Below the pieces are notes generated by a model. The model was not told where the DNA came from. It ran no database searches and saw nothing but the letters and a program-made list of their open reading frames with translations. From Olsenella profusa F0195 (GTDB lineage: Bacteria > Actinomycetota > Coriobacteriia > Coriobacteriales > Atopobiaceae), in NCBI RefSeq assembly GCF_000468755.1, contig NZ_AWEZ01000056.1, forward strand, positions 1-41,872: a stretch of 41,872 nucleotides of DNA. Direction: 5' to 3'. A program made the position numbers and the translations under genes. This document shows, one piece after another, positions 17,387 through 40,118 of this stretch (positions are counted from its first letter, which is position 1; every line of letters begins with the position of its first letter).

Positions 17387-18346
17387 ATGGACATCATGCA
17401 TCCCAAGATCGTCATTGGCACCAACTCCTGGGGATCGCCCCTGTACGAGCAGGTCGTGCGCGGCTCTGCCGTGGACGAGGGCACCCTCGCCGCAGCCGTC
17501 CAGGAGGCGCTCGACCAAGATGTCGCGCTCTTCGACACGGCACGTGCCTACGGCCTAGGCGCATGTGCCAAGATCATGGGCAGGGTGCTGCCCGACGAGG
17601 CGCATGTCTCGGCCAAGTTCACGCCCATCGGTCGCCATCGCGCGGGCAGGCTCATCGACTCCTTCGAGCGCGACGCGCGTGACCTCGGCCGCGACTACCT
17701 CGACGTCTATTGGCTGCACCTACCCAGCGACATCGAGGGCAACCTGCTCGAGGCCGTGGCGCTCAGGCAGGTGGGCCTGATCGGCCACATCGGCGTCTCG
17801 AACTTCAGCCTCGCGGAGTGCCAGCTGGCACAGGAGTTCCTTGCCCGCTTCGACGTTCCCCTCTATGGCGTGCAGAACCACTTCTCGCTCGTCTCGCATG
17901 GGCCCGAGGAGCTTCGGACGCTCGCCTGGTGCCAGGAGCAGGACGTCCGGTACTGGGGCTGGGCGACGCTCGAGGAGGGCCTGCTCGCCAAGGCCAGCCT
18001 TCGCCTGGCCTCCCTGAGGGACCGCGAGCAGCGGCTCGCACGGCTCTACAGCGTCATGGAGACGGTGGGCAACGACCACGGCATCAACCTGGCGCAGGTG
18101 GCCATCGCCTACTGCCGCACGCGGGGAGTCGTGCCGATGGTGGGGTGTCGCAGGCCCGCACACGTGCGCGAGGCTGCGGACGCTGCGCGTGTGGGGCTCA
18201 CACACACGGAGGTCGAACTGCTGGAACAGGCGGCCGAACTCTGCGGCGTGGAGGGCATCTCTGGATCGTGCGAGGTTTTCCGGCGGCTCATGTCTCGCGT
18301 GCGGACTGGGGCCGGTACGCGAGACGACCTCGGCAGGAGCGCCTAA
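17387..18346 (+). CDS. Aldo/keto reductase
   Basis: 319 residues, an NAD(P)H-dependent oxidoreductase of the TIM-barrel AKR superfamily. The catalytic tetrad is complete: D50 and Y55 (FDTARAYG), K77 (SAKFTP) and H111 (YWLHLPS). GHIGVSNFS and QNHFSLVSHGPEEL are the usual substrate and cofactor segments. ATG 17387 is the first start after an in-frame stop, with AGGAGGG 12-13 bases upstream, which is rather far. The last 27 codons, from about GSCEVFRRLMSRVRTG to the stop, lie inside the mirrored repeat element at 18264-18374. The natural C-terminus has therefore been replaced or extended by repeat DNA. The gene converges with the DUF4143 ATPase 26 bases away. The substrate is unknown. Confidence 0.9.
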   Translation: MDIMHPKIVIGTNSWGSPLYEQVVRGSAVDEGTLAAAVQEALDQDVALFDTARAYGLGACAKIMGRVLPDEAHVSAKFTPIGRHRAGRLIDSFERDARDLGRDYLDVYWLHLPSDIEGNLLEAVALRQVGLIGHIGVSNFSLAECQLAQEFLARFDVPLYGVQNHFSLVSHGPEELRTLAWCQEQDVRYWGWATLEEGLLAKASLRLASLRDREQRLARLYSVMETVGNDHGINLAQVAIAYCRTRGVVPMVGCRRPAHVREAADAARVGLTHTEVELLEQAAELCGVEGISGSCEVFRRLMSRVRTGAGTRDDLGRSA

Positions 18347-18374
18347 CCCGACTGGCAGGAGTCCTCGCACGATC
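18264..18374. repeat. Mirrored GTGCGAG repeat element, copy A
   Basis: Bounded by perfect 12-bp inverted ends: GATCGTGCGAGG at 18264-18275 and CCTCGCACGATC at 18363-18374. The core at 18291-18325 is an imperfect palindrome, TGTCTCGCGTGCGGACT facing GGTACGCGAGAC. The left end is followed by GTTTTC as in copy C. It forms the end of the aldo/keto reductase gene and overlaps the stop codon of the convergent ATPase gene at 18373-18375. Related to the elements at 21626-21777 and 39937-40068. Confidence 0.85.
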
Positions 18375-19743
18375 AGAGGGGTTCTGGCATGCCGCCCGTA
18401 GCGATGTGCTGGGCGGCATAGAGGGGGAGCCGCCTCACCTGCCTTCCATCGGAACTCGTGTCGCTGCCAAAATCGTTCTCAGAGAGCACGTAGGCATGGG
18501 GCGCGTGAGCCTTGTCCATGAATCGTGCTAGCGTCCGTGCCCTGATGTTGCGCGATGACTTGACCTCGATGGGAATGACTTCCGCACGGTTGGTCTGCAG
18601 AAGGAAGTCCAGCTCGCCATGCGTGTGCCATGAGGTGGGAGGCACCCAGTAGTAGGTGCGCGCATCGTGTGACGCAAGCGCCTGCATCACGGAATTCTCG
18701 GCCAAGGCACCCCGGAAGTCGGATGAGGCCATGATGGAGCGACGCTCCTCGGCATCGAGCCACAACCTGGGATCGACGGAAAGCTTGTAGAACATGATTC
18801 CCGTATCCGCCAGATACACCTTGAAGAAGCTGCCCTCCCCTTCGTCATAGGGCACGAGCGGGGGGTGCGTGCACGTGGTGAGGCCATGGATGGAGATGAC
18901 ACCCGCACCCTCCAGCCATTCGAGAGGCTCTATGAGCTTGGCCCTGCGACCGCCTCGCTCCACCTCCGCATACTTGAACTTCTTTGTGGAAGACCTCAGC
19001 AGCTGAGTGGAGATGCTCCCCCATATCCTGCGGGCCGCGATACCGCTGATGCCACTCTCGGGATCGCTCATGTCGGCCGTGTACGTCTCATCGATCTCTC
19101 GTTGCTGCACGCGCACCTCATCGAGCGAGCGGGTGTCAACGTATGCGGCAACGGCAGCGGGCATCCCACCAATCACCTGGTACAGCCTAAAGTATCTCAG
19201 CGCCTCCCGATGGGCAGCGTAGATCTCGAGGCTCTGTGCGTGGGACCGTATGGCATCGGCCATCTGCCGCTCGTCCAGTGCCCAAAGAAACTCCTCGAAG
19301 GTCATAGGGTGTAGGGTAAGCTGCTCGACCCCACTGGGAAAGGGCAGCTTCCTGTGACGCGTCGCGACGCCCAACTGGCTGCCCGTCGCCAGGATGCGCC
19401 ACCCAGACCCCGAGAAGAACCTCAGGGAATTGAGCGCGCGTTCGCATAGCTGCACCTCGTCAAAGAGGACGATGGCGGACTCCTTGTGAATGGGAACCCG
19501 CTTATAATCGGCAACACGCTGCATGATGCCGTCCACGTCATCGGTTGGACCATTGAAAAGCGGTGCGATGATGTCGAGGTCGGTCTGGAAGTCAAGCTTA
19601 ATGAACTCGTTGCCGGCGATACGGCGGCCCACCGACTCGGCAGCATACGTCTTGCCCACACGACGGGCGCCTCTGATGAGCAGGGGGCGTGCGTTGTGCT
19701 CCTGTATCCATTTCTCTATTGTAGACTCGATCTGCCTCTGCAT
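18373..19743 (-). CDS. ATPase of the AAA_14/DUF4143 type
   Basis: 456 residues from the ATG at 19743, chosen for AAGGAG 6 bases upstream; the frame runs on into the operator palindromes but is not coding there. Walker A GARRVGKT at residues 25-32 and Walker B IVLFDE ending at D95-E96 give a P-loop ATPase core with sensor region LATGSQLG. The C-terminal DUF4143 half ends with GELDFLLQ...VIPIEVKSS, a PD-(D/E)xK nuclease-like arrangement. Such proteins are very common and often mobile in anaerobes; their cellular role is not established. The gene stands alone behind two tandem palindromes, which suggests autoregulation. Its stop codon overlaps the tip of repeat copy A. Confidence 0.85.
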   Translation of the reverse strand: MQRQIESTIEKWIQEHNARPLLIRGARRVGKTYAAESVGRRIAGNEFIKLDFQTDLDIIAPLFNGPTDDVDGIMQRVADYKRVPIHKESAIVLFDEVQLCERALNSLRFFSGSGWRILATGSQLGVATRHRKLPFPSGVEQLTLHPMTFEEFLWALDERQMADAIRSHAQSLEIYAAHREALRYFRLYQVIGGMPAAVAAYVDTRSLDEVRVQQREIDETYTADMSDPESGISGIAARRIWGSISTQLLRSSTKKFKYAEVERGGRRAKLIEPLEWLEGAGVISIHGLTTCTHPPLVPYDEGEGSFFKVYLADTGIMFYKLSVDPRLWLDAEERRSIMASSDFRGALAENSVMQALASHDARTYYWVPPTSWHTHGELDFLLQTNRAEVIPIEVKSSRNIRARTLARFMDKAHAPHAYVLSENDFGSDTSSDGRQVRRLPLYAAQHIATGGMPEPL

Positions 19744-19760
19744 GTGTCGCTCCTTTTCAT

Positions 19761-19819
19761 ATTTCATGTACTCAGAGTACATGAAATTAATTATTTCGTG
19801 TACTCTGAGTACATGAAAT
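19761..19819. promoter_or_regulatory. Two tandem 25-bp palindromic operator-like sites
   Basis: Site 1: TTTCATGTACTC (19762-19773), central A, then GAGTACATGAAA (19775-19786), perfect, and one more pair outside. Site 2: TTTCGTGTACTC (19794-19805), central T, then GAGTACATGAAA (19807-19818), with one mismatch. The centres are 32 bases apart, about three helical turns. They lie between the start of the DUF4143 ATPase and recQ, and site 1 ends about 10 bases before the ATPase ribosome-binding site. This is the geometry of a dimeric repressor binding cooperatively. Confidence 0.75.
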
Positions 19820-19920
19820 ATGTTCATGGAGTGACGTTATGTTGGGGAGCGCGCACGTTTTGCCATAAGCTGCACTGAATGACGCGCGTTTGTGTACAGG
19901 AGGACCAGGAGGACGGACCG

Positions 19921-21560: not shown

Positions 21561-21647
21561 ATGCCACGTTCGGACGGCGTCCTGTTCGCCGTTGCCCTCA
21601 CCCCCATCGTGTGGGGTGCCTTGTTGATCGTGCGAGGTCTCCTGTAG
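21561..21647 (+). CDS. Possible 28-residue single-span membrane peptide
   Basis: Starts 29 bases after the recQ stop with AGGGG 5 bases before the ATG. It reads MPRSDG then a continuous hydrophobic stretch (VLFAVALTPIVWGALLIVRG) and ends LL-stop. Its last codons run into repeat copy B, so repeat DNA supplies the end of this frame. It has the shape of a small membrane protein, but without comparison it could be chance. Confidence 0.3.
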   Translation: MPRSDGVLFAVALTPIVWGALLIVRGLL

Positions 21648-21777
21648 ACCGTGCGACCTTTTTCGGCTGATGTTGTCTCGCATGCGGACTTTAGTCAGCA
21701 CGCGAGACATTTGGGGCGATAAAACCTAGCACGATATAGGTGAGACCTCGCATAATCGCATGGGCCCTCGCACGACC
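21626..21777. repeat. Mirrored GTGCGAG repeat element, copy B
   Basis: Outer arms GATCGTGCGAGG (21626-21637) and CCTCGCACGACC (21766-21777). An inner pair, CCGTGCGACCTTTTT and ATAAAACCTAGCACGAT, flanks a 36-bp core at 21674-21709 made of TGTCTCGCATGCGGACT facing AGTCAGCACGCGAGACA. An extra half word CCTCGCATAATC lies at 21746-21757. It fills the gap between the convergent recQ and dehydrogenase genes. The core is nearly the exact reverse complement of the core of copy C. Confidence 0.85.
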
Positions 21778-21823
21778 AGGTGCACAACCGGCACACGGTC
21801 GCGCGAGCAATCCTCCTACGTGC

Positions 21824-28063: not shown

Positions 28064-28915
28064 ATGTTTGTCACCACCAAGGACATGCTCGAGCGGGCAC
28101 AGGAGGGCCACTACGCCGTCGGCGCGTTCAACGTGGAGAATCTCGAGTTCGTGATGGCCGTCATCAGGGCCGCCGAGGAGAGGAGGTCGCCGGTCATCAT
28201 GCAGACCACGCCGGGCACGGTGAGGTACGCGAGCCTCGACTACTTTGTGGCCATGGCCCGCGTTGCGGCCGAGGACGCCTCCGTGCCCGTGGCGCTGCAC
28301 CTCGACCATGGCGACGGCTTCGACCGCTGCGTCCAGGCCATGCGCGCCGGCTACACCTCCGTCATGATCGACGGCAGCCACGTCCCCTTCGAGGACAACA
28401 TCGACCTCACCGCCTCCGTCACCAAGGTCGCAGCCCCCATCGGCCTGCCCGTCGAGGCGGAGCTGGGCAAGGTGGGCGGCAAGGAGGATGACGGCCCGGC
28501 CGTGGAGGGCGAGAGCCCCTACACCGATCCGGACGAGGCCGTCGAGTTCGTGGCGCGCACGCGGTGCACGTCGCTGGCCGTGGGCGTGGGCACCGCCCAC
28601 GGCGTCTACACGGGCACCCCTCACATCGAGCAGGGCGTCCTCAAGGAGATCCGCAGGAGGGTTGACGTGCCGCTCGTGCTGCACGGCACCTCGGGCGTCC
28701 CGGACGACCAGGTGGCCGAGGCCATCCAGAACGGCATCTGCAAGGTGAACTATGCCACCGAGCTGCGCCAGGCCTTCATGCGCGGCTTCATGGGACACAT
28801 GGCGGAGAACCCGTCGTGCTTCGACCCCAAGAAGCCGTCGATCCCCGGCATGGACGAGATCCAGGCCGTCGTCGAGAGCCACATGGACAACCTGGGGTCC
28901 ACGGGCAAGGCGTAG
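28064..28915 (+). CDS. Class II fructose/tagatose-bisphosphate aldolase, GatY/KbaY-like
   Basis: 283 residues, the size of E. coli GatY. Zinc and catalytic residues are in HLDHGD (His79, Asp81, His82). VEAELGKVGGKEDD and TSLAVGVGTAHGVY carry the next metal-site residues, and VPLVLHGTSGVPDDQV the last His. GICKVNYATELRQAF binds the substrate phosphate. These stretches match GatY closely, so cleavage of tagatose-1,6-bisphosphate to glyceraldehyde-3-phosphate and dihydroxyacetone phosphate is likely; fructose-1,6-bisphosphate is the alternative. GAAGGGAG is 7 bases before the ATG. With lacA, lacB and lacC present and no class I lacD in the window, it plausibly supplies the last step of the tagatose-6-phosphate route. 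Confidence 0.9.
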   Translation: MFVTTKDMLERAQEGHYAVGAFNVENLEFVMAVIRAAEERRSPVIMQTTPGTVRYASLDYFVAMARVAAEDASVPVALHLDHGDGFDRCVQAMRAGYTSVMIDGSHVPFEDNIDLTASVTKVAAPIGLPVEAELGKVGGKEDDGPAVEGESPYTDPDEAVEFVARTRCTSLAVGVGTAHGVYTGTPHIEQGVLKEIRRRVDVPLVLHGTSGVPDDQVAEAIQNGICKVNYATELRQAFMRGFMGHMAENPSCFDPKKPSIPGMDEIQAVVESHMDNLGSTGKA

Positions 28916-28967: not shown

Positions 28968-29154
28968 CGTGTGGGTGCCTTTCTGTGGGTGCGATTCTCA
29001 TCCATGTGGGTGCCTTTTGCTGCGTGTGGGTGCTTTTCTCCCGGAGAGGGTCGACAAAACCGCAGGTCACGAGAGGCCAAGCCGGGAGATTGACACCCAC
29101 ATGAATCGATTCGCACCCACACGGGTGGAGGATCGCACCCACAGCACCCACACG
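28968..29154. repeat. Mirrored GTGGGTGC array: long inverted repeat with eight short words
   Basis: The left arm, 28968-29044, contains GTGGGTGC four times (starts 28971, 28985, 29006, 29026). The right arm, 29082-29154, contains the complement GCACCCAC at 29113, 29135 and 29144 and a one-base variant ACACCCAC at 29093. The arms align over about 75 bases, beginning at the centre with CCGGGAGA and its complement TCTCCCGG and ending with the complement pair CGTGTGGGTGC and GCACCCACACG. A 37-base unrelated spacer lies between. Words are 5-13 bases apart. It fills the gap between the convergent aldolase and DUF4867 genes. Two direct copies of GTGGCGATCG follow at 29154 and 29178. Confidence 0.85.
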
Positions 29155-29246: not shown

Positions 29247-29909
29247 CTACCGAACGTCCGCCAGCGCCTCGCTCACGTCGATGTTCTCGCCCATGAGCCC
29301 CACATGGGCGCCCTGCCGCGCCTTCCTTGTGCTCTCGTGTGTGATCACCCACTTGTTGGCGCCCCAGAGCAGCGCAGCGTCGCCATAGCGTGGCGCATCA
29401 GCGGGACGTGGCCCATTGGTTCCCTCGGGCAGCGCCACCAGCATCCTGAAGCCCCGGTCGGCATGAGCGTGACAGGGCGTGTAGTGCAGGGTGTCCGCAT
29501 ACACCTCGATGAGCGTTCCGGCAGGGACCAGGAAGGCCCGTACGAGGGACGTGTCCAGGCAGAAGTCGCCATCCAGCTCCTCCCGCTTGGCAAGGAGCAG
29601 CACCACATCGTCCGTCGGCAGGTTGAACTCGCTCGAGCGGTGGTATTCCAGGCTGTTCAGCTTGGTGTTGTGCCCACAGACGCACCCCAGCTCCGTGGGC
29701 AGCCCCGCAAAGAAGAGGAGCTCCAGGTCGTGCGCCGCAGGAACCCCGTGCAGAGCGGGAACGTCCGCCACGTACGCGGTGCCCTCCTTGGGAAGCGGCA
29801 CGCTCTCCCTGAGCGCCGCGACCATCTGGTCGCGCACCTCATAGGGTATGTCATCCCACACCCCGCCATAGCGCGCGAAGCTGGGATCGGTGACTGGGGC
29901 GACATTCAT
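29247..29909 (-). CDS. DUF4867-family protein, cupin-like
   Basis: 220 residues. The sequence resembles the DUF4867 family, which I recall as a companion of lactose, tagatose and galactitol PTS genes and which has no proven function. Cupin-like features are seen: SLEYHRSSEFNLPTDDVVLL near residues 86-105, and VPAGTLIEVYADTLHYTPCHAH at about 131-152, with His residues placed as in metal-binding beta-barrel isomerases and lyases. AGGGGAG is 6 bases before the ATG. It is the last gene after EIIA-EIIB-EIIC of the galactitol-type PTS, separated from EIIC by a hairpin. A sugar-phosphate isomerase or epimerase role is an inference from context. Confidence 0.65.
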   Translation of the reverse strand: MNVAPVTDPSFARYGGVWDDIPYEVRDQMVAALRESVPLPKEGTAYVADVPALHGVPAAHDLELLFFAGLPTELGCVCGHNTKLNSLEYHRSSEFNLPTDDVVLLLAKREELDGDFCLDTSLVRAFLVPAGTLIEVYADTLHYTPCHAHADRGFRMLVALPEGTNGPRPADAPRYGDAALLWGANKWVITHESTRKARQGAHVGLMGENIDVSEALADVR

Positions 29910-39880: not shown

Positions 39881-39936
39881 AGTTGGTCGTGCAGGCACAG
39901 GGGGCCGAAGGCGTGACGGCGGACGCCACCCGATCC

Positions 39937-40068
39937 GGTCGTGCGAGGCTCCCCTCCCGTCGTGCGAGGTTTTCTCGCCAAAACTGCCTCGCGTGCTGAC
40001 TTGAGTCCGCATGCGAGACAATATCGGCCAAAAAACCTAGCACGATGGGTGGGAAACCGAGCACGACC
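39937..40068. repeat. Mirrored GTGCGAG repeat element, copy C
   Basis: Outer arms GGTCGTGCGAGG (39937-39948) and CCGAGCACGACC (40057-40068). Inner arms TCGTGCGAGGTTTTC (from 39960) and AAAAACCTAGCACGA (to 40045). The core at 39985-40020 is CCTCGCGTGCTGACT facing AGTCCGCATGCGAGACA, nearly the reverse complement of the copy B core. It lies between convergent lacC and the transposase gene, inside the non-coding stretch 39801-40184. Confidence 0.85.
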
Positions 40069-40118
40069 GGAGGGCGCCCGTCACCTTGGTACAACCTGAC
40101 TTTGGCAGTAGGGGGAGG

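What the first reader, a model, noticed from the sequence alone, without database searches (positions are those of the whole stretch)
28968..29154. Long inverted repeat with eight GTGGGTGC words in mirror order
Four words on the left arm and their complements on the right arm (one with a single change), joined by a 37-base spacer; the arms align over about 75 bases. The words are far better conserved than the bases between them (spacings 5-13), which suggests selection on the word itself, as in a multi-site protein-binding array, and not only on RNA pairing. It has the same building plan as the GTGCGAG elements but with a different word.
Basis: seen in the sequence. Interest (0 to 1): 0.72.

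Follow-up and report, generated by a model that had tools for sequence, protein, structure and literature searches.

The report
Mirrored-word hairpin repeat family
The eight mirrored words are one copy of a long hairpin-shaped repeat found at about three dozen places in this bacterium, mostly between genes; its tip recurs in hairpins with quite different arms across the same bacterial order, and a jumping gene has landed in that tip.

Summary
The array is real and beyond chance: 7 exact GTGGGTGC words plus one with a single change, mirrored around a 37-nt spacer. It is one of at least 36 loci in this genome with two or more exact words, usually 20 nt apart around a centre of nearly fixed length. 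Words are near-invariant; most bases between them vary and pair between arms less often than in shuffled sets. Outside the species the core lies in long hairpins with other arms: 32 of 44 sampled core loci have strong inverted repeats against 1 of 880 control positions, in 14 arm clusters; in a draw from the phylum, 12 of 13 genomes with hits are of the same order. One pair of the stem around the core's GACCT loop covaries. An IS110 element sits in the core at two loci and carries two guide-like matching segments. Best reading: a REP/BIME/BOX-like family of interspersed hairpins, probably spread by an unidentified trans-acting enzyme; no jump was observed. Protein binding to the words is possible but untested.

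The parts
28971..29151 (.). whole element: mirrored word array with central core
   Evidence: one of at least 36 loci in the genome with two or more exact words
28971..29033 (+). left arm: four GTGGGTGC words (28971, 28985, 29006, 29026)
29093..29151 (-). right arm: four words on the minus strand (29093 with one change; 29113, 29135, 29144)
29038..29044 (+). 5' side of inner stem CTCCCGG
   Evidence: columns 40-46 of 56 copies paired in 338 of 392 cells
29082..29088 (+). 3' side of inner stem CCGGGAG
29049..29069 (-). asymmetric core TGACCTGCGGTTTTGTCGACC
29060..29072 (-). possible apex mini-hairpin: short stem round the GACCT loop, followed by TTTTGT
   Evidence: one pair of this stem covaries over 95 cores; letters checked
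28064..28915 (+). left neighbour: class II fructose-bisphosphate aldolase
29247..29909 (-). right neighbour: DUF4867 protein, convergent with the aldolase

Best explanation
One copy of a lineage-specific, dispersed, mostly intergenic hairpin repeat that behaves like a non-autonomous mobile element of the REP/BIME/BOX/MITE sort. Shown: at least 36 loci; modular 20-nt units in both arms; a centre of nearly fixed length with a core that recurs across the order; gain or loss of units and in-place inversion between strains; an IS110 element in the core at two loci. Inferred: the single strand (DNA or RNA) folds into the hairpin; the apex (GACCT loop plus TTTTGT) and the words are what a trans-acting enzyme reads when it copies the element; copies persist where they do no harm. 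That enzyme is not identified and no jump was seen. The element also serves as a landing site for an IS110 and as a recombination joint.
For: At least 36 loci with two or more exact words; 72 paired-word matches against 0 in the control; near-fixed centre and near-invariant words in 56 distinct copies. Same core elsewhere in the order: 85 of 147 genomes at E<=0.01 (rows used to build the model match by construction, and one or two chance genomes are expected at this cut-off); 32 of 44 distinct sampled core loci outside the species lie inside strong inverted repeats against 1 of 880 control positions; 14 arm clusters among 37 elements. Apex: pair 10/18 stands in 69 of 95 cores against 48.0 expected, 0 of 2000 shuffles reach it. 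Neighbouring genes in all orientations: 7 convergent, 6 divergent, 14 tandem among 27 G000 copies with both neighbours called by my own simple caller (counted; two divergent copies share one intergenic region). Strain differences: inner units and core of the window copy are inverted in G154; a 20-nt unit is missing at another locus. IS110 in the core at two loci of G154, one of them shared with G000, with AAAACCGCA and GACCTG 35 nt apart in its non-coding end. No array with two words on each side in the viral contigs fetched and no plasmid match to the 301-nt window stretch.
Against: No occupied/empty pair was found: wherever both flanks of a G000 copy align in the fetched parts of G154 (27 stretches, not the whole genome), G154 has an element too; L011, L020, L033, L034 and the left side of L035 could not be placed. 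So no target duplication or recent jump is shown. No RAYT-type transposase (PF01797) in the genome, and no other mobiliser identified. Between the strains the core is not conserved more than its surroundings: 18/1415 substitutions against 384/64154 in flanks (p 0.005, faster, not slower). Congeners lack the element at the aldolase locus, but what follows the aldolase also differs there, so that is no empty site. Only one of the apex pairs covaries convincingly in both sets, and related sequences inflate the count. Exact core 20-mers also occur outside the order: 7 of 12 stretches, four of them from one Myxococcales MAG.
Confidence: 0.6

Rival explanations
1. Protein-binding array: a host DNA-binding protein, for example a nucleoid-associated or chromosome-organising protein, binds the words on double-stranded DNA, on one face because the period is about two helical turns; the mirror order gives a symmetric complex.
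For: Near-invariant words with mostly variable bases between, 20-22 nt phasing in 127 of 141 spacings, a second word family with 21-nt period, and pairing of inter-word bases below shuffled level.
Against: Words not found in three congeners and replaced by other arms in relatives that keep the core; this model gives no role to the core or the covarying apex pair; words do not evolve significantly more slowly than spacers between the two strains, nor than flanks.
Confidence: 0.2
2. Structured RNA: the elements are transcribed as parts of neighbouring transcripts or as small RNAs and bind an RNA-binding protein, set mRNA ends or act as weak terminators.
For: A covarying pair beside a conserved loop, long stems with different sequences but kept pairing, arm-specific preferences in non-pairing columns. 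In some copies the apex stem is followed by TTTTG, as in a weak terminator.
Against: Divergent intergenic regions are used too (6 of 27); no Rfam family at gathering score in the window and 20 loci; the inner CTCCCG stem is followed by AAA on either strand in the consensus. No transcript data and no terminator scan were made.
Confidence: 0.15
3. Plain inverted repeat made and kept by replication template switching, without function or mobility.
For: Inversion and unit-number changes between strains are typical of recombination in close inverted repeats (recalled).
Against: Inter-word bases pair less than in shuffles, the opposite of what template-switch correction would give; at least 36 dispersed loci and a core shared across the order need copying or selection.
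Confidence: 0.05

Closest known systems
REP/BIME/REPIN elements (RAYT-mobilised)
   Same: Dispersed extragenic palindromes, paired inverted units, mosaic arrays, species-specific families, targets of specific IS elements (abstracts of PMC2817692, PMC3733652, PMC3116915, PMC1525189).
   Different: Mirrored elements well over 100 nt rather than 20-40 bp units; no PF01797 transposase in the genome; a shared internal core with lineage-specific arms; word arrays phased at 20-22 nt.
Pneumococcal BOX elements
   Same: Modular interspersed hairpin repeats with a variable number of internal units, thought parasitic, with slow current turnover (PMC3049150, passages read).
   Different: Here the repeated units lie in both arms in mirror order and the shared part is the centre; other sequences.
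MITEs
   Same: Short, non-coding, inverted repeat, multi-copy.
   Different: No target-site duplication and no parent IS with matching ends shown.
IS621/IS110 insertion into REP elements by bridge RNA
   Same: An IS110 element sits in the centre of a palindromic repeat, with guide-like segments matching the target.
   Different: A different IS and repeat family; the guide role is inferred from sequence only.

Membership tests
REP/BIME (GTAG or CGTC tagged) | 20-40 bp palindromic unit | tested here: not met
   the inner part alone spans 131 alignment columns; definition from the abstract of PMC3733652
REP/BIME (GTAG or CGTC tagged) | unpaired GTAG or CGTC tag at one end | tested here: inconclusive
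   no GTAG or CGTC in the consensus; the outermost feet vary and were not searched one by one
REP/BIME (GTAG or CGTC tagged) | RAYT (Y1 transposase) in the genome | tested here: not met
   PF01797 search of own genome: no match; it rings in 5 of 14 control genomes; assembly 99.4% complete in 73 contigs. CGTC REPs are said to lack a dedicated transposase
REP/BIME (GTAG or CGTC tagged) | dispersed, multi-copy, extragenic, both orientations | tested here: met
   at least 36 loci; both core orientations; one of the copies (L038) overlaps a called ORF
MITE | inverted repeats bounding a short non-coding element | tested here: met
   in relatives
MITE | target-site duplication on insertion | tested here: inconclusive
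   no empty site found between strains or congeners
MITE | ends match an autonomous IS in the same genome | not tested
   no genome-wide search for an IS bounded by the words was made
BOX-like modular repeat | internal module in variable number between strains | tested here: met
   20-nt units differ in number at orthologous loci
Known Rfam RNA family | match at gathering score | tested here: not met
   0 matches in the window and in 20 chosen loci

The most novel reading that the evidence does not exclude
An order-wide class of mobile folded hairpins whose shared apex (short stem, GACCT loop, TTTTGT) is read by an enzyme not of the RAYT type, while each lineage evolves its own arm code (long perfect stems or mirrored word arrays) as the specificity part: a new route for spreading non-coding hairpins.
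Probability: 0.25. Interest if true: 0.82.

Novelty: new variant of a known kind. Interest (0 to 1): 0.6.

Why it matters
It describes a superfamily of interspersed hairpins, not found described in my searches, in the order of Collinsella, with an unusual anatomy: shared apex, lineage-specific arms, phased mirrored words. The missing mobiliser is a concrete open question. The element is also a further natural setting, besides REPs, in which an IS110 appears programmed to a host repeat, and the words offer a testable case for telling protein recognition from hairpin folding.

Tried and rejected
Terminator as the general explanation: the inner stem is followed by AAA in the consensus and copies also lie between divergent genes; no terminator scan was run, and the apex stem plus TTTTG remains a possible weak one. 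Known RNA family: no Rfam match at gathering score. RAYT mobilisation: no PF01797 in the genome. Phage or plasmid origin: the exact core 20-mer is in 4 viral contigs, with arm scores of 15-21 at two points per matched base and no control run; the word scan gave 25 contigs, none with two words on each side in the positions printed; no PLSDB match to 301 nt of the window. Other IS110 elements entering the core: matches at E<=1e-40 in 27 of 118 genomes, 30 loci looked at for core halves, none outside this species with both halves at plausible ends by inspection. Two of the one-mismatch core hits (L045, L049) look like terminators after tRNA genes (by eye), so the 29 of 297 genomes include chance hits.

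Rows dropped or limits. One search keeps only alignments of at least 96% identity and 800 nt; the window locus and L009, L012, L024 and L025 have no row in it; 95 cores were taken by a pattern that itself favours GA[C/A]CTG and TTTTG, so the loop's conservation is partly by construction (the covarying column 10 is free); a few spurious rows (second frames in L047, L052, L115, L148; also L120, L127) and one own-species row counted as other (L040) were left in; 48 fetched loci of the hits (not all hits), one dropped at an edge (L125), three merged as repeats; several come from one genus. clusters by any shared 9-mer. The listing was capped, so 36 loci is a minimum. The shuffle test uses words chosen after seeing them and keeps base content only.

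Papers: outlines with abstracts of PMC1525189, PMC2817692, PMC3733652, PMC3116915; passages of PMC3049150 and PMC11208160; everything else as listings; one search returned nothing.

Full report
Observation. The window holds four GTGGGTGC words at 28971-29033 and four complements at 29093-29151, one of them with a single change, around a 37-nt spacer. The exact word occurs 8 times in the window against 3.05 expected; 0 of 100 shuffles had as many. The array lies between convergent genes for a class II aldolase and a DUF4867 protein.

The family in this genome. The word-gap-word pattern gives 72 matches in G000 and 0 for the pattern read backwards. Fetching the surroundings gives 36 loci with at least two exact words; three of them (L014, L024, L035) show only one side, L024 because a transposon splits it. 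In nearly all complete copies the innermost words lie 67 nt apart start to start (exceptions L023 with 66 and L032 with 72). Neighbouring words lie 20 nt apart in 92 of 141 spacings of at most 30 nt, 21 in 16 and 22 in 19. G001-G003 of the same genus have no match at E<=0.001; G154, a complete genome of the same species, has 61 word pairs.

Anatomy. Fifty-six distinct copies from G000 and G154, oriented by the core, give a consensus whose left half is CGTGTGGGTGCC[A/T]TTTGCTGCGTGTGGGTGCcTTTCTCCCG, followed by gacggGCCTCCgGCGACCTGCgGTTTTGTgGGCC and then CGGGAGAAAGGCACCCACACGaAtCGATtGGCACCCACA. Word columns carry 1.8-2.0 bits in the inner word and about 1.4-2.0 in the outer word, less in their last letter. 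Columns between words mostly carry 0.4-1.2 bits, with one exception of 2.0 (column 26), and prefer different, non-complementary letters on the two arms. There 300 of 560 cells pair, against 329.8 in sets with the 3' halves shuffled among copies; 0 of 1000 shuffles are as low. Outer-word cells (446 of 504 Watson-Crick against 427.6) and the CTCCCG stem (338 of 392 against 326.4) pair slightly more than shuffled, 0 of 1000 as high each; the inner word does not clearly (487 of 504 against 483.8; 75 of 1000 as high).

The core. The spacer contains GCGACCTGCNGTTTTGTYGGC or close variants, in either orientation. A 43-nt sequence model finds it at E<=0.01 in 85 of 147 genomes of the order, with 26 hits in G000, 25 in G154, 18 in G141 and 7 in G033. 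In 298 genomes drawn from the phylum, 13 have a hit at E<=0.001: 12 of the same order, G000 included, and one of the same class. An exact scan of named genomes gave 12 stretches: four of Collinsella (three C. aerofaciens, one C. intestinalis), one uncultured Coriobacteriaceae, four contigs of one Myxococcales MAG and one each of Spirochaetales, Actinomadura and Rhodobacteraceae. The C. aerofaciens MCC370 stretch has the same letters and contig position as the hit in G128, a genome of 'the same order', so the window's order is taken as Coriobacteriales (that Collinsella belongs there is recalled).

Arms differ, plan stays. Of 44 distinct core loci sampled outside the species, 32 have an inverted-repeat score of 14 or more between the 90 nt on each side; 1 of 880 control positions in the same loci does. 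Thirty-seven elements with such arms fall into 14 clusters by shared 9-mers, with arms such as AACTCGTTTCGGTTTTATGCAGTTA, CGGAAGTGCGG or TGGCA...GTTTGGTACG. In the last cluster the middle bases differ between copies while the stem stays paired. The GTGGGTGC array is one lineage's version of the arms.

Apex. Around the GACCT loop one pair of a short stem covaries: it stands in 69 of 95 cores against 48.0 expected, as G-C in 45 and C-G in 20, and 0 of 2000 shuffles reach it; it holds in the own-species set (32 of 43 against 21.4; 2 of 2000) and in the others (37 of 52 against 26.5; 4 of 2000). The next two pairs are weak (8 and 41 of 2000 over all, not clear in either set alone), and the closing pair hardly varies. 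Relatedness inflates such counts, so this favours single-strand folding without proving it.

Dynamics. At the window locus G154 has the inner two units and core inverted while outer units and flanks are kept; at another locus it lacks one 20-nt unit. About 5.6 kb between two arrays of G154 (1264.6-1270.3 kb) is missing at the matching place of G000. Substitutions between well-aligned orthologous copies: words 7/1088, inter-word 13/1070, core 18/1415, flanks 384/64154. Words against inter-word bases is not significant (p 0.18); inter-word bases and core change faster than flanks (p 0.017 and 0.005). So recent purifying selection on words or core is not shown inside the species. No empty site was seen.

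IS110. A transposon with an IS110 transposase (PF01548 and PF02371) splits the core at two loci in G154, one also in G000...ACAAAACCGCA | IS | CAGGTC.... Cut out, it is 1645 bp; the non-coding stretch beyond the end of the transposase gene carries AAAACCGCA and, 35 nt on, GACCTG on the transposase strand, and 0 of 20000 shuffles contain both in order within 60 nt. One segment would pair with one target strand and the other with the other, as bridge-RNA guides do (PMC11208160, passages on the donor loop; the order of the target guides is recalled). That specific IS elements enter REPs is known (PMC1525189, abstract). The guide role here is inferred.

Second family. GTGCGAG elements have the same plan with 21-nt period and a different centre: 12 distinct places in G000 match the copy at 21600-21800, itself included, and none in the 8 other genomes searched, three of them congeners.

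Judgement. It works most like an interspersed hairpin repeat of the REP/BIME/BOX kind, but fails two tests of tagged REPs (unit size, RAYT) and is not filed as one. How it spreads is inferred. A protein on the words remains a live rival at about 0.2.

Noticed in passing
window 21626-21778, 39934-40071, 18265-18375: Three copies of a second mirrored-word family (GTGCGAG, period 21), dispersed over 12 places in the genome and not found in three congeners.
   Followed up: partly
L092 (G154 1588518-1590162), L084, L093: IS110 element inserted in the core of the repeats, with guide-like segments matching the core in its non-coding end.
   Followed up: partly
L062, L066, L069, L070: One Myxococcales MAG carries tandem repeats of about 42 nt containing CGACCTGCCGTTTTGTTGGC, in some units followed by an A run as in Collinsella copies; chance or shared recognition unknown.
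   Followed up: no
L025 4297-4318 against L087 (G154 1264.6-1270.3 kb): About 5.6 kb between two arrays in G154 is missing in G000, as if lost by recombination between arrays.
   Followed up: no
window 19758-19822: A 30-nt inverted repeat, 97% complementary with a 5-nt loop, unrelated to the words.
   Followed up: no
G154 whole chromosome: Word-pair clusters are unevenly spread: 27 clusters leave 0.78 Mb (about 1.71-2.49 Mb) empty; 56 of 20000 random sets have as large a gap.
   Followed up: partly
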